From Corallococcus sp. AS-1-6 (GTDB lineage: Bacteria > Myxococcota > Myxococcia > Myxococcales > Myxococcaceae), in contig NZ_JAIQDE010000039.1 of NCBI RefSeq assembly GCF_020037015.1, forward strand, positions 1-64,000: a DNA stretch of 64,000 nucleotides, written 5' to 3'. The position numbers and the translations under genes are program-made. The notes beneath the pieces were generated by a model. It was not told the origin of the DNA. It saw only the letters and a program-made list of their open reading frames with translations, and searched no databases. How positions within the stretch are numbered: position 1 is the first letter of the stretch; each line of letters opens with the position of its first letter. Of the stretch, positions 15,912 through 23,365 are shown piece after piece.

Positions 15912-17130
15912 GAGCGTGGCCGGCGCCTCCGCCGCCACGCCGGGCCTGCAGCGCCGGGTGGAGGCGGTGGTGTTCCTCACCGTGTTCCTGGACCTGGTGG
16001 GCTTCGGCATCGTCATCCCGATGCTGCCCTTCTACGTGCAGTCCATGGGCGGCTCGGCGCGCACGGTGGGCATCCTGCTGGGGTGCTTCAGCTTCACGCA
16101 GTTGCTCGCCACGCCGCTGCTCGGGCGCTACTCGGACCGGCACGGGCGGCGGTCGGTCATCCTGCTGAGCCTGCTGGCGAACGCGGTGGCGATGGCGCTG
16201 TTCGCGCTGGCCAGCCACCAGCGGCTGCTGCCGCTCCTGTTCGCGTCGCGCATCCTGGCGGGGGCCACGTCCGGCAACATCGCCGCGTGTCAGGCGGCGC
16301 TCGCGGACGTGACGACGAAGGAAACGCGCGCGAAGGCCATGGGGCGCATTGGCGCGGGCATCGGCCTGGGCATGGTGCTGGGGCCCACGCTGGGCGGCCT
16401 GTTCTCCGGCCTGGGGCCGTGGGTGCCGCCGCTGCTCGCCGGAGCCCTGGCGCTGGTGGGCTTCGCGGGCGCGCTCCTCGCGATGCCGGAGACGCACCCG
16501 GTGGAGAAGCGCGTGGCGGCGAAAGCCCAGACGCGCTGGTCCGCGCTGCGGGACGCGCCCCAGCGCAAGGCCCTGGGGATGGTGCTGGGGCTGTTCTTCG
16601 CGGTGTTCCTGTCCATGACCACGCTCCAGGTGGCGTTCGCGCTGCTGGTGCAGGCGCGGCTGGGCTGGGGCTCCAAGGAGGTGGGCTACACCTTCGCGGT
16701 GGTGGGGGGCCTGGGCATGGTCATCCAGGGCGGGCTGATTGGCCCGCTGTCGCGCGCGGCGGGTGAGTTCCGGCTGCTCATCTGCGGAGCGCTCCTGCTC
16801 GCGGGCGGCATGGCGGGGCTCGCGGTGTCTCACCAGGCGCTCGCGATGATGGCCTCCGTGGTGCTGGTGGGCGTGGGGACGGGCTTCCTGCAGCCCTTGA
16901 TTTCGAGCCAGGCCTCCCAGGTCGCCCCGCCGTCCCAACAGGGCGCCGTGCTGGGTCTGGCGCAGTCGTGCGGTGGGCTGGCCCGCACGGTGGGTCCGGT
17001 GGCGAGTGGCTGGATGTATGCGTCATGGAGCACCCAGGCCCCCTTCCTGACGGGCATGGTGTCGGCGCTCGCGGCGGCGGTGCTGGGCGTGCTCCTCCAT
17101 CGGGAAACCGGCGGCGACGCGGGGCGCTAA
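15901..17130 (+). CDS. MFS transporter, TetA-like (12 TM)
   Basis: This 409-residue protein has about 12 hydrophobic segments. It carries the MFS motif A, LLGRYSDRHGRRSVILL, after TM2, and the DHA1 motif LDLVGFGIVIPMLPFY in TM1. These place it with drug/H+ antiporters of the TetA type. It overlaps the epimerase gene by 11 bases and ends the operon that begins with the acyltransferase. It may export a lipid-linked or small hydrophobic compound; the substrate is unknown. Confidence 0.88.
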   Translation: MAAESVAGASAATPGLQRRVEAVVFLTVFLDLVGFGIVIPMLPFYVQSMGGSARTVGILLGCFSFTQLLATPLLGRYSDRHGRRSVILLSLLANAVAMALFALASHQRLLPLLFASRILAGATSGNIAACQAALADVTTKETRAKAMGRIGAGIGLGMVLGPTLGGLFSGLGPWVPPLLAGALALVGFAGALLAMPETHPVEKRVAAKAQTRWSALRDAPQRKALGMVLGLFFAVFLSMTTLQVAFALLVQARLGWGSKEVGYTFAVVGGLGMVIQGGLIGPLSRAAGEFRLLICGALLLAGGMAGLAVSHQALAMMASVVLVGVGTGFLQPLISSQASQVAPPSQQGAVLGLAQSCGGLARTVGPVASGWMYASWSTQAPFLTGMVSALAAAVLGVLLHRETGGDAGR

Positions 17131-17268
17131 AGCCTTTCAGACCCACCCGGGTCCCTGCCTTCCCGGCAACGCCATACCTCCTTTGGGGGGCTTGTCTTCA
17201 CCCGACCCGTGGGAGCAGTCTTTTGCTCACGAGGGGGCGGTGAGGCCATCACTCCCGGGGGGTAGTGC

Positions 17269-18486
17269 TTGCCATTGGCGGGAGAAGTCGCGCTGCTGGA
17301 TGCGTTGGACCGTCAGGCCCGGCGCCGGGCGGAAGGCATCGCGACCCTGAGCGTGTTGGAGGGACCGGAGGCCCTGGGGGGGACCCTCTGGAGTCAGTGG
17401 GCGGCGCGGCACGGGCTGACGGTGGTGGAGGTGTCCGGGGAGGACCCGCACGAGGCGGCGCTGGGGTGGGCCCGGGCGCTGGCGGCGACGCGGGACCTGG
17501 GAGCGGACGCGGAGGCGCTGGCGACGTTCAGCCTGACGGCGGCGAATCCCAGACACACGCCGGTGTTCCGGGGAAAGACAGCCCATGAGCGGCGCGTGTT
17601 GCTGGACGCGCTGCCGCCGCCCGCGGTGCTGGCGGACGCCACGTGGGCGCTGTGCCGGGAGCTGGTGATTGGCCGTGAGGCGGTGGAGCCAGGAACGCTC
17701 CCGGAGGCCGTGCGCACGGCGTTCGCGAGGAACCCGGGCGCGGGGCTGCGCGCGTTGCACGCGCTGGTGCCGCCCGGGCAGGCCCCCGTGGTGCGAGTGG
17801 CGGTGGGGGAGGCGCCATCGTGCCGGGGGCTCCAGGTGGCGGGGGCGTTGAGCAGCGCGGTGCCGGCGCTCGCGGTGGCGTGCGTGGTGTCCAGCGAGGC
17901 ACTGGGGGCGTTCCTGGCGGGCGGGGAGACGCGGCTGAAGGCGCTGGTGCGCGAGGGCGTGCTGGAGGTGCCGGAGGAGCCCTCCGAGACCGCGAGCGCG
18001 GTGGCGACGCTCCGGAGGCTGGAGCGCGCGGGGGCGCCCGAGCAGCAGCGGGTGAGCGCCGCCGAGGTGGCGCTGGCGGTGCTGACGGGCGCGGGCGAGG
18101 CGGGCGCGGACCGGGCGCGGAGCAAGGCGGAGGCGTACCTGCGCGACCGGCTGGAGGAGCACTCGCGCACGGCGGGCCTCTTCGAGCTCAACGCCCGGCT
18201 GCGCCCCGAGGACAGGCGCAGTTGGGAGGTGGACCTGCTGTGCCGCTCGCTGCGCATCGCGGTGGAGATCGACGGCTACCACCACTTCCAGGATCCGGAG
18301 CGGTTCCGCCGCGACCGGCGCAAGGACCTGGACCTGCAGCGCGAGGGCTACTGGGTGTACCGGCTGCTCGCGACGGACGTGCTGTCCCGGTTGGAACACA
18401 TCCTCCACACCCTCGACACGTTGATTGAAGCCCGCGGGCACGCGCCTGGCGGGCGGGAGCCACGACATGGACACCGACACTCCTGA
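17269..18486 (+). CDS. DUF559-type PD-(D/E)xK nuclease with degenerate P-loop-like N-terminus
   Basis: This 405-residue protein starts at TTG, the first possible start after an in-frame stop at 17263, with GGGGGG upstream. Residues about 319-385 match DUF559/very-short-patch-repair-like nucleases: WEVDLLCRSL carries Asp322, RIAVEIDGYHHFQDP carries Glu333 and Asp335, and EGYWVYRLLATDVLSRLEHI completes the fold. Residues 1-300 look like a degenerate AAA-type ATPase. GPEALGGT at 32-39 sits where GxxxxGK[ST] would be but lacks the lysine, and VVEVSGEDPHEAALGWARAL follows as after a Walker A strand. It is the first gene of a cassette with a winged-helix-like protein and a HerA-like ATPase, an arrangement typical of defence systems. 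The target of cleavage is unknown. Confidence 0.8.
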   Translation: MPLAGEVALLDALDRQARRRAEGIATLSVLEGPEALGGTLWSQWAARHGLTVVEVSGEDPHEAALGWARALAATRDLGADAEALATFSLTAANPRHTPVFRGKTAHERRVLLDALPPPAVLADATWALCRELVIGREAVEPGTLPEAVRTAFARNPGAGLRALHALVPPGQAPVVRVAVGEAPSCRGLQVAGALSSAVPALAVACVVSSEALGAFLAGGETRLKALVREGVLEVPEEPSETASAVATLRRLERAGAPEQQRVSAAEVALAVLTGAGEAGADRARSKAEAYLRDRLEEHSRTAGLFELNARLRPEDRRSWEVDLLCRSLRIAVEIDGYHHFQDPERFRRDRRKDLDLQREGYWVYRLLATDVLSRLEHILHTLDTLIEARGHAPGGREPRHGHRHS

Positions 18487-19477
18487 TACCCGGATTCAGG
18501 GCCTGGCCCTGGCCTGGCTGGCGACGCGCTCGGAGAAGAAGGCCGGCACGCGCACCGAGCTGGCGAAGACGCTGCACGCGTTCGTGGAGCACCGCTGGAG
18601 CCGGGGCGAATGGACCGGCCGGTTCGACGCGCTGCTGACGGAGCTGCTGGAGGACAAGCTCGTGGAGGCCCGGGGCCGTTCGGGGCTGGCGTTGACGGGG
18701 GCGGGCCGTCAGCAGGCGTTGAAGTTCCTGCGGGTGGATTCCCCCAAGGGGCTCACGTGGAAGCGCGTGAAGCAGCAGCACCTGCTGGCGAAGGGGCTGG
18801 GCCTGCCGGGCTCCAAGTCCGCGCTGGGGCGCTTGTCGGACGCGGACGGCGTGCGGGCGCTGGTGCTCAAGCGGGCGCACCAGGTGGAGGGGCCGGAGAC
18901 GCCGACGCTGGCGCAGGTGCGAGACCGACTGCTGTGGCGGCGACTGGGCGTGGAGACGGACGAGGCGTTCACGCTGCGCGCGGTGCAGGCGCACCTGCTG
19001 GGCAAGCTGCTGGACCAGGAGGTCCGCGACCCGAAGCGCGGCGTGGAGCAGTTGGCCGCCCGCGCGGTGGGGGCGCCGCGGGTGGACGCGGAGGTGGTGC
19101 GGATGGCGGCGCTGCGGCAGTGGGTGCTGGCGGAGGCGGACAAGGCCTCCGTGCCCAGGCCGAAGCCCGTGGAGGCGCCCGTGCAGCCACTGCCCACGGA
19201 TACCGCGTCGTTCGCCACGCGGGTGCTGGACGCGGCGAGGGGCATCCCGCCCTCGGGCCGCTTCGGGGACAACAAGGTCTTCATCTCCCACGTGTGGAAG
19301 GCGTTGCAGCCCGAGTGGGCGGACCGCCCGGCGTTCAATGAGGCCCTGCTCGCGGCCAACCGCGCGCATGAGCTGGCCCTGGGGCGCGCGGACCTGCTGG
19401 CGGCCATGAACCCCCGGGACATCACCGAATCCGAAGTGCGCACCGTCGGCGCCACCTTCCACTTCGTCGTCCTTTAG
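18467..19477 (+). CDS. Cassette middle protein, probably winged-helix, function unknown
   Basis: This 336-residue protein overlaps the nuclease gene by 20 bases, with its own GGGAG ribosome site, and is followed after 25 bases by the ATPase gene. It is almost all helical and charged. Residues about 15-85 (RTELAKTLHAFVEHRWSRG, FDALLTELLEDKLVEARGRS, GLALTGAGRQQALKFL) look like a winged helix. A second helical region spans about 90-210, and the C-terminus (FGDNKVFISHVWKALQ) contains HELALGRADLLAAMNPRDI. The last segment could be another winged helix. No catalytic motif is seen. A DNA-binding or adaptor role between the nuclease and the motor is inferred from position only. Confidence 0.75.
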   Translation: MDTDTPDTRIQGLALAWLATRSEKKAGTRTELAKTLHAFVEHRWSRGEWTGRFDALLTELLEDKLVEARGRSGLALTGAGRQQALKFLRVDSPKGLTWKRVKQQHLLAKGLGLPGSKSALGRLSDADGVRALVLKRAHQVEGPETPTLAQVRDRLLWRRLGVETDEAFTLRAVQAHLLGKLLDQEVRDPKRGVEQLAARAVGAPRVDAEVVRMAALRQWVLAEADKASVPRPKPVEAPVQPLPTDTASFATRVLDAARGIPPSGRFGDNKVFISHVWKALQPEWADRPAFNEALLAANRAHELALGRADLLAAMNPRDITESEVRTVGATFHFVVL

Positions 19478-19502
19478 CTGAATCCCTCTCAGGAGCCTCT
19501 CC

Positions 19503-22500
19503 ATGTCCAAAGACGCCCGGCTGCAAGCGTTCCTGTCCGATGGCCCCGAGATCTTCAACAGCGTCCAGCAGGGCCAGACGCTCTGGAAGCGGGATCCGTT
19601 CGACGTGCCCTCCATCAACGCCCCGGCACGCGCGGCGTTCGAGCGGCTCGTGAAGCGCGCCACCGCGCAGACACCGCCCGAGGACGGGAGGATCCTCCTC
19701 TTGAAAGGGGACTCCGGCAGCGGCAAGACGCACCTGGTGCGTGCCTTCCGCAACAGCGTGCACGAGAGCGGCAGGGGCTACGTCGGGTATCTGCCCATGA
19801 CCGTCGATGTGACGCACTACGACCGGTACATCCTGTCGGAAGTCATCGACTCGCTGGAGAAGCCGTACGACCACGGACATGTCGAGGACACGGGGTTGAT
19901 GCTGCTGTCCGAGGCCGTGCTCAAGCGCTGCAAGAACATCTTCGCAGCCAACATTCCCGAAGAGGACCTCCTCGATGACGAGGAGTTGCACGGCAACATC
20001 CGCGCGGTCGCGGACGACCTGCACGCGGACCCTGCGTTCCGGAACATCGACGTCAACCTCCTGCGCGCCCTGCTCTGCCTCCAGCGCCGCGAGGCCCGCT
20101 TCCACCACCGCATCGTCCAGTGGCTGCGCTGCGAGGAGATGTCACCGGAGGACCGGGCCATCATCGGCAACCTGGTCCCGCGCAACACCGAGGAGTCCCC
20201 CAGCCGGATGCTCATCCAGTTGGGCCAGCTCATGGGCATCTTCGGCAAGGCGATGGTCCTCTGCGTCGACCAGGTGGAGGACATGCTCGACTTCGAGCAG
20301 CGGCCCCAGATGGAGCCCTCCTTCCGCCGCGCGATGAGCACGCTGGTCGCGCTGGCGGCGCAGGTGCCCACGGCCGTCGTGGTGGTCTGCTGCCTCTCCG
20401 ACTTCTGGACGGCGACGCGCATGCACCTCAACCGCGCGATGCTCGACCGTATCGAGCGCAATCCCGACCCCGTGGACCTGGAGATCAACGTCACCGCGCA
20501 GACGGGGCGGGACATCGCGGCCCGCCGGCTGAAGTCCCTGTACGAACAGCAGGGCATCGCGTTCAACCCGGCCCAGCCCACCTACCCCATTCCGCCCCAG
20601 GGCTTCGAGCTGCTGAGCGGACAGCGGACGCGCGACATCCTGAACGCCTGCCACCGCTACCGGGAGCAGGCCATCCAGGACGGCAAGCTGCCGGCGGCGT
20701 TCCCCCTGCCGGAGAAGAAGCAGCCTCCCGCGAAGGGAGTCACCGTCATCACGCAGACGCCCCCTGCGCCGGACCTGGATCAGGCCTGGACGGACTTCAA
20801 GGCCCGGTTCAAGGAGCGTGTGCCGGAAGAGGACGCGGAGATCGCGGCCCTGCTCGACTGGGGCATCCAGGTGAGCGCGGAGGAGCTGGGAGGCGCCACC
20901 CGCTTCCGGGTGGAGCCCCTCGGGGACGACGCGCTCGACGTCACGCTCCAGCCGGGGAACACCCACCTCTACGTCGCGATCTGCAACACCACCTCCCGGG
21001 GTGGACACCTGGCGAGGCGGATGGAGAGCGCCATCAGGGCTGCGAAGAAGAGCCTGCCGGTGCTCGTGCGCTCCACGGAGTTCCCCGGGGGCCTGGGCAC
21101 GCTGGTGGCGGACCAGACCGCGGTGCTCCACCGCAAGGGCGGCAGACGCGCGGTGGTCGGCCCCAGCGACCTGCGGGAGCTGCTCGCGCTGAAGGCGTTC
21201 CGCAAGCAGCACGACGAAGCCGCGTTCCTCGGCTGGAGCCGCGTGGCCCGCCCCGTGACGCGGCTCCAGGGCATCACGGACCTGCTGGCCCTGGAGAAGT
21301 ACACGCCTTCCACCACGGTGGCCGTGGCGTCCGCCACGCCCGTGCCCAGCAAGGCCGGCACTTCAAGAGAGGCCTCCGTGACGGACGGGGTCAACGAATG
21401 GGAGGTCACTCCCGCGGGCCCCATCCTGCCGCACACGCCAGAGGAGCCCACCCCCACGGCCGTCGCGGAAGAAGCGCCCAGGCCCCCGAAGAAGGGCGAA
21501 GGGACCAAGGCGCCGAAGAAGGAGGAAGGCCCCAAGGGCCAGATGCGCGTGGGCGTCTCCGAAGGCGTCTTCACCAACACCGTCTACGTTCAGGCGGATG
21601 AGCTGAACAAGCACAGCGCCTTCCTCGGGGGTCCTGGCAGCGGCAAGACGACGCTCGCCCTGAACCTCATCGAGCAGTTGGTGATTCAAGGCGTCCCCGC
21701 CATCCTCGTGGACCGCAAGGGCGACCTCGCCGCGTATGCGCGCGACGAGTCGTGGGAGGAGGAGCTGGACGACCCGATGATGGTCGAGCGCCGCAAGCTG
21801 CTGCGGGAGCGCGTGGACGTGGCGCTCTACACGCCGGGCCGCTCGGACGGACGCCCGCTGTCGATTCCGGTGGTGCCCCGGGGGCTCGACAAGCTCTCGC
21901 CCGAGGAGCGCGACCAGATCCTCCAGCAGGCGGCGGACGCCCTCTCCACCATGCTGGAGTACAAGAGCAGCCAGAAGGACAAGGCCGCGAAGGCCCTGCT
22001 GGCCCTGGCGCTGCGCCTGCTGGTGCAGCGCCCGTCCGGCAAGGAGATCACCCTGGACCTCATCCAGCGCTTCGTCGCCGCGCAGGACATGACGCTCGTC
22101 CAGGAGGCGCATGGGCTGGATGACAAGGTCTTCATCAAGCTGGCCCAGGACCTGGCGACGCTGCGGCTCAACGCGCAGAGCCTGCTCTCCAACACCGGGG
22201 AGAAGCTCGACATGAACGAGCTGCTGGGGCTGGGGGCCGCGAAGGTGCCGGGCAAGACGCGGCTCACCATCATCAGCACCAAGTTCCTGGGCGGACTGCA
22301 CAGCTCGCTGTTCTGGGTGTCACAACTGCTGGTGGAGGCCAACCGCTGGGCCAGCCAGCACCCGTCGCCCAGGCTCCAGGCGGTCCTCCTCTTCGACGAG
22401 GCGGACATCTACCTGCCCGCGGTGGGCATCCCCGCCACGAAGCAGCCCATGGAGAACCTGCTCCGGCGAGCGCGTTCGGCCGGCGTCGGCGTGATGCTCG

Positions 22501-22802
22501 CGACGCAGAGCCCCGGCGACCTGGACTACAAGTGCCGCGACAACGTGCGCGCCTGGTTCGCGGGCCGGGTGAAGGAGGAGACCGCGCTCCGCAAGCTCAA
22601 GCCCATGTTCTCGGAGGCGCGCGTGGACGCTTCGGTTCGCCTCCCGGCGCAGAAGACAGGTCAATTCCATGTCCTGCGTGAAGGTCAGGTGGAACAGCTC
22701 AAGGCAGACCGGAACATCATCAAGACAGAGCAACTGTCCGAGGAAGAAATCCTCCAGCTCGCGCACCGCTCCGGGGAGCAGGGCATCCGCAACGCGGGGT
22801 GA
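19503..22802 (+). CDS. Double P-loop ATPase with C-terminal HerA/FtsK-like motor
   Basis: This 1099-residue protein has two nucleotide-binding modules. The first (residues about 40-400) has a Walker A at 69-76 (GDSGSGKT) and AMVLCVDQVEDMLDF as a Walker B region, resembling AAA/STAND-type ATPases. A middle region (about 420-610) has mixed alpha/beta content, HLYVAICNTTSRGGHLARR, of unknown fold. After a Lys/Glu/Pro linker, the C-terminal module has Walker A GGPGSGKTT (709-717), Walker B VLLFDEADIYLP (Asp965-Glu966), an arginine-rich region (MENLLRRARSAGVGVMLATQ) and the SPGDLDY turn typical of HerA and TraD/VirB4-like hexameric motors. Such motors pump DNA or partner with nucleases in repair and phage defence. 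The start has AGGAG eight bases upstream. It forms one cassette with the two preceding genes. Confidence 0.85.
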   Translation: MSKDARLQAFLSDGPEIFNSVQQGQTLWKRDPFDVPSINAPARAAFERLVKRATAQTPPEDGRILLLKGDSGSGKTHLVRAFRNSVHESGRGYVGYLPMTVDVTHYDRYILSEVIDSLEKPYDHGHVEDTGLMLLSEAVLKRCKNIFAANIPEEDLLDDEELHGNIRAVADDLHADPAFRNIDVNLLRALLCLQRREARFHHRIVQWLRCEEMSPEDRAIIGNLVPRNTEESPSRMLIQLGQLMGIFGKAMVLCVDQVEDMLDFEQRPQMEPSFRRAMSTLVALAAQVPTAVVVVCCLSDFWTATRMHLNRAMLDRIERNPDPVDLEINVTAQTGRDIAARRLKSLYEQQGIAFNPAQPTYPIPPQGFELLSGQRTRDILNACHRYREQAIQDGKLPAAFPLPEKKQPPAKGVTVITQTPPAPDLDQAWTDFKARFKERVPEEDAEIAALLDWGIQVSAEELGGATRFRVEPLGDDALDVTLQPGNTHLYVAICNTTSRGGHLARRMESAIRAAKKSLPVLVRSTEFPGGLGTLVADQTAVLHRKGGRRAVVGPSDLRELLALKAFRKQHDEAAFLGWSRVARPVTRLQGITDLLALEKYTPSTTVAVASATPVPSKAGTSREASVTDGVNEWEVTPAGPILPHTPEEPTPTAVAEEAPRPPKKGEGTKAPKKEEGPKGQMRVGVSEGVFTNTVYVQADELNKHSAFLGGPGSGKTTLALNLIEQLVIQGVPAILVDRKGDLAAYARDESWEEELDDPMMVERRKLLRERVDVALYTPGRSDGRPLSIPVVPRGLDKLSPEERDQILQQAADALSTMLEYKSSQKDKAAKALLALALRLLVQRPSGKEITLDLIQRFVAAQDMTLVQEAHGLDDKVFIKLAQDLATLRLNAQSLLSNTGEKLDMNELLGLGAAKVPGKTRLTIISTKFLGGLHSSLFWVSQLLVEANRWASQHPSPRLQAVLLFDEADIYLPAVGIPATKQPMENLLRRARSAGVGVMLATQSPGDLDYKCRDNVRAWFAGRVKEETALRKLKPMFSEARVDASVRLPAQKTGQFHVLREGQVEQLKADRNIIKTEQLSEEEILQLAHRSGEQGIRNAG

Positions 22803-22927
22803 GTCCACCCGGGTCGTGCATCCAACACACCCCAGGCATTTGAGAGCCTTTGCGCCCACCCACGGACCTTCGCGCGCGCCAACGTGGCACCATCGCCAGG
22901 CAGCCCCCCCTCTCTCCTGGAGACACC

Positions 22928-23218
22928 ATGCGCCGTTCATTGATGCTGGGTCTTGCCGTCGTCGGACTTCAGTTTGGCTGTGGAATGGACGAAGCCGAGC
23001 AGCGCGCGGCCTCGGAGCCGGAGAGGCGCGTTGACGCGCTCTACCGCTGCACGACCGACTCCTTGACCATCTATTACAGCGACGCCACGTACACGACGCA
23101 GGTCGGCTCGGATCGGTGCTTCTGCGGCAGGGCTCCCTTGCGAACGGGCCAGATGACCGACTACGCGCTCACGGGATTCAGTGAGGACTGCCCCGGGTTC
23201 GCGCCGGCGGCCCAGTAA
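22928..23218 (+). CDS. Small predicted lipoprotein
   Basis: This 96-residue protein has a lipoprotein signal: MRRSLMLGLAVVGLQFGCG, with the cysteine at residue 18. The mature part has four more cysteines and the motif SLTIYYSDATYTTQVGSD, a pattern I associate with short secreted myxobacterial and actinobacterial proteins of unknown function. The start has CTGGAGAC upstream. It follows the ATPase gene after 125 bases but is not obviously part of that cassette. Confidence 0.7.
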   Translation: MRRSLMLGLAVVGLQFGCGMDEAEQRAASEPERRVDALYRCTTDSLTIYYSDATYTTQVGSDRCFCGRAPLRTGQMTDYALTGFSEDCPGFAPAAQ

Positions 23219-23233
23219 CCCTCCGGCACCGAA

Positions 23234-23268
23234 GCCCGCGGGCAGGGGGGCGCTCCCCTCCCGCGGGC
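23234..23268 (+). terminator. Strong stem-loop after the lipoprotein gene
   Basis: GCCCGCGGG at 23234-23242 pairs perfectly with CCCGCGGGC at 23260-23268, with further internal AGGGG/CCCCT pairing. There is no T-run, so termination is likely but not certain. Confidence 0.5.
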
Positions 23269-23365
23269 GCAACCGGCCCCCGAGCAGAGCACCGTCCCCG
23301 CGCGGCTTCTCGCGGCAGTGGCTCCCATACTTCCTCCAAGTGTCTTTCATGGAGGGATGGGAGGA

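What the first reader, a model, noticed from the sequence alone, without database searches (positions are those of the whole stretch)
17269..22802. Candidate undescribed three-gene defence-like cassette: DUF559 nuclease, winged-helix-like protein, double-ATPase HerA motor
Three tightly packed genes (20-bp overlap, then a 25-bp gap) encode a PD-(D/E)xK nuclease with a degenerate P-loop half, a helical winged-helix-like protein, and a 1099-residue protein that fuses an AAA-type module to a HerA-like motor. HerA motors paired with nucleases occur in repair and in several phage-defence systems. I do not recognise this exact three-gene arrangement as a named system. The direct evidence is the Walker motifs and the DUF559 motif; the defence role is inference.
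Basis: partly seen in the sequence, partly recalled or inferred. Interest (0 to 1): 0.8.

Follow-up and report, generated by a model that had tools for sequence, protein, structure and literature searches.

The report
Myxobacterial nuclease and double-motor gene cassette
Three adjacent genes encode a DNA-cutting enzyme, a probable DNA-binding adaptor and a two-engine DNA pump; similar trios occur in bacteria of three phyla and look like an uncharacterised system that captures and cuts DNA, probably invading DNA.

Summary
Gene 1 (17269/17275-18486) has a Vsr-like DUF559 nuclease behind a dead AAA-like half. Gene 2 (18467-19477) has an N-terminal winged helix. Gene 3 (19503-22802) fuses a STAND/Orc-Cdc6-type AAA domain to a HerA motor; key ATPase and nuclease residues are invariant in the relatives aligned. 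The block is a real unit: 63 of 66 copies in 61 Myxococcaceae genomes keep all three genes in order, and similar trios occur in Actinomycetota and Alphaproteobacteria. It is neither pan-myxobacterial housekeeping nor visibly mobile: near-fixed in seven genera (61 of 63 genomes), mostly at shared sites, with no defence gene among 10 neighbours scanned. In Corallococcus the nuclease half, gene 2 and gene 3 are exchanged as one allele with a breakpoint inside gene 1; against one species they are the only window genes at or below 80% identity (60-77%; median of 52 others 93%). The closest known kind is the predicted 'HerA/FtsK capture' counter-invader class (PMC10853773), to which it adds a Vsr-like nuclease and an AAA-HerA fusion. 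I favour an anti-invader DNA-capture-and-cleave role (0.55); repair is the main rival. No function was tested.

The parts
17269..18486 (+). Gene 1: degenerate AAA-like N-half (about residues 1-235, no P-loop lysine) plus Vsr-like DUF559 nuclease (about residues 280-389). Start 17269 TTG or 17275.
17275..17931 (+). N-half of gene 1: sides with the phylogeny of the upstream flank, i.e. not part of the exchanged allele
17932..22802 (+). Allelic module exchanged as one unit in Corallococcus: nuclease half of gene 1 + gene 2 + gene 3 (ends approximate, from 300-bp windows)
18467..19477 (+). Gene 2: 336 aa, N-terminal winged helix, helical middle, low-confidence linker, small C-terminal end; no family match
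19503..20732 (+). Gene 3, N-terminal AAA domain of STAND/Orc-Cdc6 type; key Walker A (within residues 69-77) and Walker B (255-259) residues invariant in 27 sequences
20769..21302 (+). Gene 3, fast-evolving middle region (residues 423-600); no convincing family match; could be the inactive REase expected of the class, not shown
21543..22802 (+). Gene 3, C-terminal HerA/FtsK-type motor; key Walker A (709-717), DEAD (965-968) and Q1002 residues invariant in 27 sequences

Best explanation
The cassette encodes one DNA-capturing, restriction-like complex directed at foreign DNA (phage, plasmid, or incoming chromosomal DNA). Gene 3's AAA domain loads on or senses DNA or an invader signal; its HerA ring grips and pumps double-stranded DNA; the winged-helix protein (gene 2) contacts DNA or bridges the parts; gene 1 docks through its dead AAA half and its Vsr-like nuclease cuts the translocated DNA. 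Shown here: three co-conserved genes, invariant ATPase and nuclease residues, and allelic exchange of the nuclease half together with genes 2 and 3. Inferred from the families: ring formation, pumping, cleavage, complex formation, target, and the defence role.
For: Order and strand conserved in 63 of 66 Myxococcaceae copies; same-order trios in Tsukamurella, Nonomuraea and Methylobacterium, where gene 3 aligns with the myxobacterial family over 1016 columns (7e-59) and the nuclease domain at 5e-16, though the short gene 2 is not a demonstrable homologue. Invariant Walker, HerA and nuclease residues. The same part list is proposed as a counter-invader class in PMC10853773; 'HerA/FtsK + ORC/Cdc6 + fast-evolving wHTH + nuclease' recurs in PMC12839542. 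The AAA half hits AAA_16, AAA_22 and nSTAND1 in 16 of 16 members and BrxC_BrxD in 3 of 16. Deep alleles at one site: cassette data reject the flank tree (delta lnL 2567), flank data reject the cassette tree (p 6.5e-5); cassette 77/70/60% versus 85-99% for 52 other window genes in G028. Such allele turnover is common at conflict loci (general knowledge).
Against: No PADLOC hit (E up to 0.01) in 10 neighbours of the window cassette. Of 10 neighbours of seven other copies, four had hits: a Septu-like pair near one copy, a kinase (PD-T4-6, mad6 models) near another, a subtilase-like protease near a third: no consistent defence island. Near-fixation (61 of 63) at mostly shared sites, and no match in 50,697 phage records and only four in 72,556 plasmid records, resemble a resident, possibly housekeeping, locus. 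No methylase domain among 10 flanking proteins. Allele discordance was seen in Corallococcus but not in the 10 close pairs of the Myxococcus group, which come from only five genomes. Gene 1 is missing beside three second copies (L057, L058, L081) and not detected at L111.
Confidence: 0.55

Rival explanations
1. DNA repair or chromosome-maintenance machine: the HerA ring and the Vsr-like nuclease process broken or stalled host DNA, as archaeal HerA works with NurA (recalled).
For: Near-fixed and in place in seven genera, single copy in the window's genome, low dN/dS in the HerA half (0.11-0.33), ordinary neighbours.
Against: Not found over both halves in 131 of 195 Myxococcota genomes, two of them in an otherwise positive genus; deep allele swapping in Corallococcus; three gene 3 places in G159; genes 2-3 occur without gene 1.
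Confidence: 0.25
2. Suicidal (abortive) immunity: the STAND-like AAA domain senses an invader product and releases the Vsr-like nuclease on the host's own DNA, with HerA as the scaffold.
For: AAA half hits nSTAND1 in 16 of 16 members and NACHT in 8 of 16; the fast middle region (40-48% aa identity between allele classes) could be a sensor.
Against: STAND proteins often carry sensor repeats (recalled); none is among the 25 Pfam families shown of 51 for gene 3. A processive HerA motor would be superfluous for indiscriminate cutting (inference).
Confidence: 0.12
3. Domesticated Tn7/Mu-like transposition module or DNA-transfer apparatus: a TnsC/MuB-like AAA with a nuclease, plus a HerA/TraD-like pump.
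For: N-half of gene 1 superposes on TnsC and MuB (Z about 9); the HerA half has weak matches to conjugative coupling proteins.
Against: No transposase, integrase or conjugation domain among 10 neighbours; no repeat pair bounding the cassette in 16800-23300 (16 nt or more); sites shared within genera. Z about 9 is common for AAA folds.
Confidence: 0.06
4. The sharp identity drop in Corallococcus is fast in-place evolution, not allele exchange (a separate question from function).
For: Raised dN/dS in the nuclease half (0.47-0.87) and the gene 3 middle (0.31-0.63).
Against: Synonymous divergence also jumps (G028: 0.09-0.12 in flank genes, 0.38-1.07 in the module) and groupings conflict with the flanks (AU tests).
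Confidence: 0.05

Closest known systems
Predicted 'HerA/FtsK capture' systems with Orc/CDC6 AAA + REase + wHTH (Rakesh, Aravind, Krishnan 2024, PMC10853773; abstract, sections 22 and 26, and passages seen)
   Same: HerA/FtsK-type motor, STAND/Orc-Cdc6-type AAA, a REase-fold nuclease and a winged-helix protein in one operon, in varying fusions.
   Different: Here the nuclease is Vsr-like/DUF559 fused to a dead AAA; AAA and HerA are one polypeptide; the locus is resident rather than mobile in Myxococcaceae; an inactive REase insert was not demonstrated. 'Vsr' and 'DUF559' do not occur in that paper's main text; its figures and supplement could not be seen.
BREX-Related Capture (BRC) systems (PMC12839542, passages seen)
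   Same: HerA/FtsK translocase with ORC/Cdc6 AAA and winged-helix proteins.
   Different: BRC has PglZ, DUF6079, STAND-NTPase and DUF4007, with GNAT and TGT in a subset; the 10 neighbours scanned here gave no PADLOC hit.
MADS (mad8 component; PADLOC model only, no paper read)
   Same: The HerA half's best PADLOC model is mad8 (2.1e-22); the same for Tsukamurella and Methylobacterium.
   Different: No other mad gene in the window cassette or its 10 scanned neighbours. A mad6 kinase hit beside the distant copy L068 (1.1e-47) scores below 13 PD-T4-6 kinase models for the same protein.
DndFGH
   Same: Three genes, HerA motor, nuclease, winged helices (as described in PMC10853773).
   Different: No DndF, DndG or DndH profile hit for the three window proteins at E up to 1; nuclease and HerA sit on different polypeptides.
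Vsr and Vsr-like VsrA of Caulobacter (PMC12907096, passages seen); I-Bth0305I; NGO0050
   Same: Nuclease-domain fold: 3hrl Z 12.7, 3r3p 11.9, Vsr 1cw0 10.2; VsrA bears DUF559.
   Different: Not known to me to be fused to a dead AAA or to share an operon with a HerA motor (recalled, not tested).

Membership tests
HerA/FtsK capture, Orc/CDC6 class (PMC10853773) | HerA/FtsK ATPase in the operon | tested here: met
   HerA_C and DUF87 above cut-off; PDB HerA-like hits; invariant motifs including the glutamine taken as sensor-1
HerA/FtsK capture, Orc/CDC6 class (PMC10853773) | Orc/CDC6-clade AAA ATPase | tested here: inconclusive
   AAA_16, AAA_22, nSTAND1 in 16 of 16; BrxC_BrxD in 3 of 16; no clade-level tree or model of the AAA half
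HerA/FtsK capture, Orc/CDC6 class (PMC10853773) | Active REase of either of the paper's two families | tested here: inconclusive
   A REase-fold nuclease with conserved residues is present; identity with either family not tested
HerA/FtsK capture, Orc/CDC6 class (PMC10853773) | Inactive REase inserted between AAA and C-terminal wHTH | tested here: inconclusive
HerA/FtsK capture, Orc/CDC6 class (PMC10853773) | Winged-helix component | tested here: met
   Gene 2 N-terminus, Z about 9-10 to MarR/PadR/MukF winged helices, a Z that the tool calls middling for helical models
HerA/FtsK capture, Orc/CDC6 class (PMC10853773) | Mobile gene neighbourhood (descriptive in the paper) | tested here: not met
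   Shared sites within genera in Myxococcaceae, no bounding repeats; so works-like, not filed as a confirmed member
MADS | Set of mad genes beyond mad8 | tested here: not met
   No other mad hit in the 3 proteins or 10 neighbours of the window cassette
DndFGH | DndF, DndG, DndH profiles | tested here: not met
   None at E up to 1 for P0001-P0003
HerA-NurA repair pair | NurA-family nuclease partner | tested here: not met
   Pfam hits of gene 1 are DUF559 and MTES_1575 only
Anti-phage function | Protection of cells from phage or plasmid | not testable with these tools
   needs an experiment

The most novel reading that the evidence does not exclude
The cassette is an allele-matched DNA-interference locus near-fixed in fruiting myxobacteria: nuclease half, adaptor and double motor co-travel as one compatibility type, so strains of different type attack each other's incoming DNA (phage-borne, conjugated or taken up), making it a new variety of HerA-capture immunity kept polymorphic by balancing selection at one chromosomal site.
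Probability: 0.12. Interest if true: 0.85.

Novelty: new variant of a known kind. Interest (0 to 1): 0.6.

Why it matters
If it works as proposed, it is a compact three-gene representative of the HerA/FtsK-capture class, which the parts of the source paper that I read propose from sequence and structure analysis, and it is present in Myxococcus xanthus (strain AM003, L041), a tractable host, so the idea becomes directly testable. The module-wise allele exchange, with a breakpoint between the dead AAA half and the nuclease half, is a natural experiment on which parts must match, and suggests that nuclease, adaptor and motor act together.

Tried and rejected
Rejected: all-Myxococcota housekeeping (64 of 195 genomes); whole-system match in PADLOC. 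Not shown: homology of gene 1's dead AAA half to gene 3's AAA domain (hhalign probability 0.0; not excluded); sequence homology of gene 2 to the short winged-helix gene of the actinobacterial and Methylobacterium operons (probability 1.9%), whereas the Xanthobacter gene 2 is a clear homologue (5e-13). TAL-effector names look like repeat artefacts; not followed. DNA between gene 3 and the kinase gene in some Corallococcus loci is varied; of it only one protein was scanned with Pfam and none with PADLOC. A 200-kb viral contig with a HerA-like gene (L156) has neither gene 1 nor gene 2 by HMM. Repeats in 16800-23300: only short pairs, among them the two P-loops. VIA-align lists are second looks; families absent there are not excluded. 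Literature: ten searches used; among the papers listed I found none describing this trio, but I opened passages of only five (PMC7159879, PMC12907096, PMC10853773, PMC12288472, PMC12839542), and supplements were not readable, so Supplementary Data S1 of PMC10853773 may contain it. PMC12288472 lists an M. xanthus HerA-like helicase, MXAN_4539, falling after mitomycin C (one table row); whether it is this gene 3 is unknown.
Full report
What is there. Three + strand genes lie at 17269/17275-18486, 18467-19477 and 19503-22802 with a 20-bp overlap and a 25-bp gap. The window belongs to a 9.5-Mb genome in 82 contigs; the closest named relative among the loci is Corallococcus carmarthensis (86% for gene 3). 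Genes 1 and 3 are single copy in it. Neighbours are ordinary: glyoxalase, acyltransferase, epimerase and MFS transporter upstream; PAS histidine kinase, class-IV aminotransferase and serine hydrolase downstream. Of the 11 other genes called between 11907 and 28062 ten were scanned; none has a PADLOC hit at E up to 0.01.

Gene 1. The C-terminal part is a DUF559 nuclease. An AlphaFold model (14 sequences, mean pLDDT 81, pTM 0.56) places it closest to NGO0050 (3hrl, Z 12.7, 94 residues), the I-Bth0305I catalytic domain (3r3p, 11.9) and Vsr (1cw0, 10.2). D320, E331, D333 and H337, among others, are invariant in 28 sequences. The N-terminal half superposes on AAA ATPases, including TnsC, MuB and ORC (Z about 9, 9-16% identity), but 0 of 25 sequences covering the loop have a P-loop motif: a dead AAA-like half, with low specificity of the match.

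Gene 2. No Pfam, NCBIfam or PADLOC match at E up to 1 and none in PHROGs at 0.001. The model (15 sequences, pLDDT 78, pTM 0.48) has an N-terminal winged helix (Z about 9-10 against MarR, PadR, MukF), a helical middle and a small C-terminal end. The low pTM leaves domain packing uncertain.

Gene 3. The N-terminal half hits AAA_16, AAA_22 and nSTAND1 in 16 of 16 sequences, NACHT in 8 and BrxC_BrxD in 3, i.e. a STAND/Orc-Cdc6-type AAA. The C-terminal half is HerA (HerA_C 1.6e-10; mad8 2.1e-22; PDB HerA-like proteins). Key residues of both Walker sites and Q1002 are invariant in 27 sequences. The middle (423-600) is the fastest part and has no convincing match; by eye its likely strand-helix order could suit an inactive REase, which I did not test by structure.

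Distribution. In 195 Myxococcota genomes a gene 3 match was found in 84; by my reading of the rows 64 span both halves (some split over contigs) and 20 match only the HerA half. The 64: seven genera of the window's family, 61 of 63 genomes, plus G097, G159 (three places) and G160. For those 61 I fetched the copies: 65, and 66 with the window. Genes 2 and 3 are in 66 of 66, gene 1 in 63 of 66; it is missing beside second copies in G032, G033 and G034 (L057, L058, L081), whose genomes hold a full copy elsewhere. No fetched copy breaks the order or strand. Copies cut by contig ends (L054, L129, L136) were counted as present. At L111 (G160) gene 1 was not detected, so genes 2-3 may be the core. 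Left out of this count: L085-L090 and L111-L116.

Other phyla. tblastn of gene 3 against 72,556 plasmid-collection records gave four records, two of them with chromosome-like content. Three carry a trio in the same order: Tsukamurella (DUF559 345 aa, 223 aa, DUF87 1088 aa; between ribosomal protein genes), Nonomuraea and Methylobacterium. The fourth, Xanthobacter pXAUT01, has a short nuclease-like remnant, gene 2 and a gene 3 that ends after the AAA half, with IS genes beside it. Profiles: gene 3 families 7e-59 over 1016 columns; nuclease domain 5e-16; Xanthobacter gene 2 5e-13; the short gene 2 of the other three not significant. Phage records: none.

Sites. In g1, g5 and g19 the cassette sits at one orthologous site: w14970 and/or w25826 was found beside it in 27 of 27 g19, 2 of 2 g5 and 10 of 15 other g1 genomes; in the other five it lies near contig ends, four show another flank gene of the site (w15901 or w23366) and one, on a 7.6-kb contig, none. 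Of the 21 remaining copies 19 share neighbours in four groups (g3 with g6; second g6 copies; G035 with G037; four g7 copies) and two (G041, G042) stand alone. So within this family the locus is inherited largely in place.

Allele exchange. Against G028 nucleotide identity is 93-98% up to about 17,900, falls to 59-85% through the nuclease half, gene 2 and gene 3, and returns to 88-95% beyond 22,750. Of 53 other called genes of the window 52 have a G028 match: 85-99%, median 93, none at or below 80; the cassette is 77/70/60%. In G018 the cassette is 94/89/84% and 39 of 53 other genes, all that matched in the stretches fetched, have a median of 93. In G016, 3 of 35 matched other genes are also at or below 80%. 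Ten-taxon trees fall into three groups (the third, G025 with G027, weakly supported at 57); the cassette data, without the fast gene 3 middle, reject the flank tree (delta lnL 2567, AU p 2.6e-90), the flank data reject the cassette tree (p 6.5e-5), and the N-half of gene 1 rejects the cassette tree too (p 2.7e-5). Synonymous divergence jumps with it, so old alleles were exchanged; it is not only fast evolution. Against: no discordance in ten close g19 pairs (from five genomes); in g1, four of six close pairs were discordant.

Comparison with the known. PMC10853773 (abstract, sections 22 and 26, passages) predicts counter-invader operons combining an Orc/CDC6 AAA, an inactive REase, an active REase, HerA/FtsK and a winged helix in varying fusions. 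PMC12839542 (passages) extends the theme. This cassette fits with two differences: a Vsr-like nuclease on a dead AAA, and AAA-HerA in one chain. I do not file it as a confirmed member, because the Orc clade and the inactive REase were inconclusive and the neighbourhood is not mobile here. MADS and DndFGH membership were tested and not met.

Mechanism and verdict. Most likely (0.55) a complex that captures foreign DNA, pumps it with HerA and cuts it with gene 1. Repair is the chief rival (0.25), because the locus is near-fixed and in ordinary surroundings. The defence-island argument fails here: of ten neighbours of seven other copies, PADLOC hits fell on a Septu-like pair near one copy (PtuB, and a C-terminal PtuA fragment), a kinase near a second (PD-T4-6 2.3e-70, mad6 1.1e-47) and a subtilase-like protein near a third; I take the last two for general kinase and protease families (inference).

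Noticed in passing
L042:13556-19270 (also L048:12194 onward): A 1904-aa gene without a convincing Pfam match sits between gene 3 and the histidine kinase in C. carmarthensis; other Corallococcus loci carry different inserts (4-9 kb) there, one (L032) with a protein that looks PAAR-like to me by eye: a variable spot.
   Followed up: partly
L059:4020-5401: A PtuB-like HNH gene and a short PtuA C-terminal fragment (Septu-like, possibly broken) lie about 3 kb from the cassette of G034.
   Followed up: partly
G159 contigs C73, C88, C7 (L112-L114): One Myxococcota genome outside the window's class holds gene 3 relatives at three places, two of them with gene 2 sequence upstream.
   Followed up: partly
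G021 contigs C691 and C478: Short extra gene 3 fragments (44-117 residues, 47-84% identity) suggest remnants of a second copy in this Corallococcus genome.
   Followed up: no
L156:7839-9200: A 453-aa HerA-like ATPase that the gene 3 profile hits (3.5e-45) on a 200-kb viral contig, without genes 1 or 2.
   Followed up: partly
L090:4274-9242: In Tsukamurella the trio lies between ribosomal protein genes rplN and rpsQ with a VapBC-type pair and a DEAD/DEAH helicase: a possible insertion spot.
   Followed up: no
L088:7518-10278: Xanthobacter pXAUT01 carries what looks like a decayed version: 102-aa nuclease-like remnant, a full-length gene 2, and a gene 3 that ends after the AAA half next to IS genes.
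   Followed up: partly
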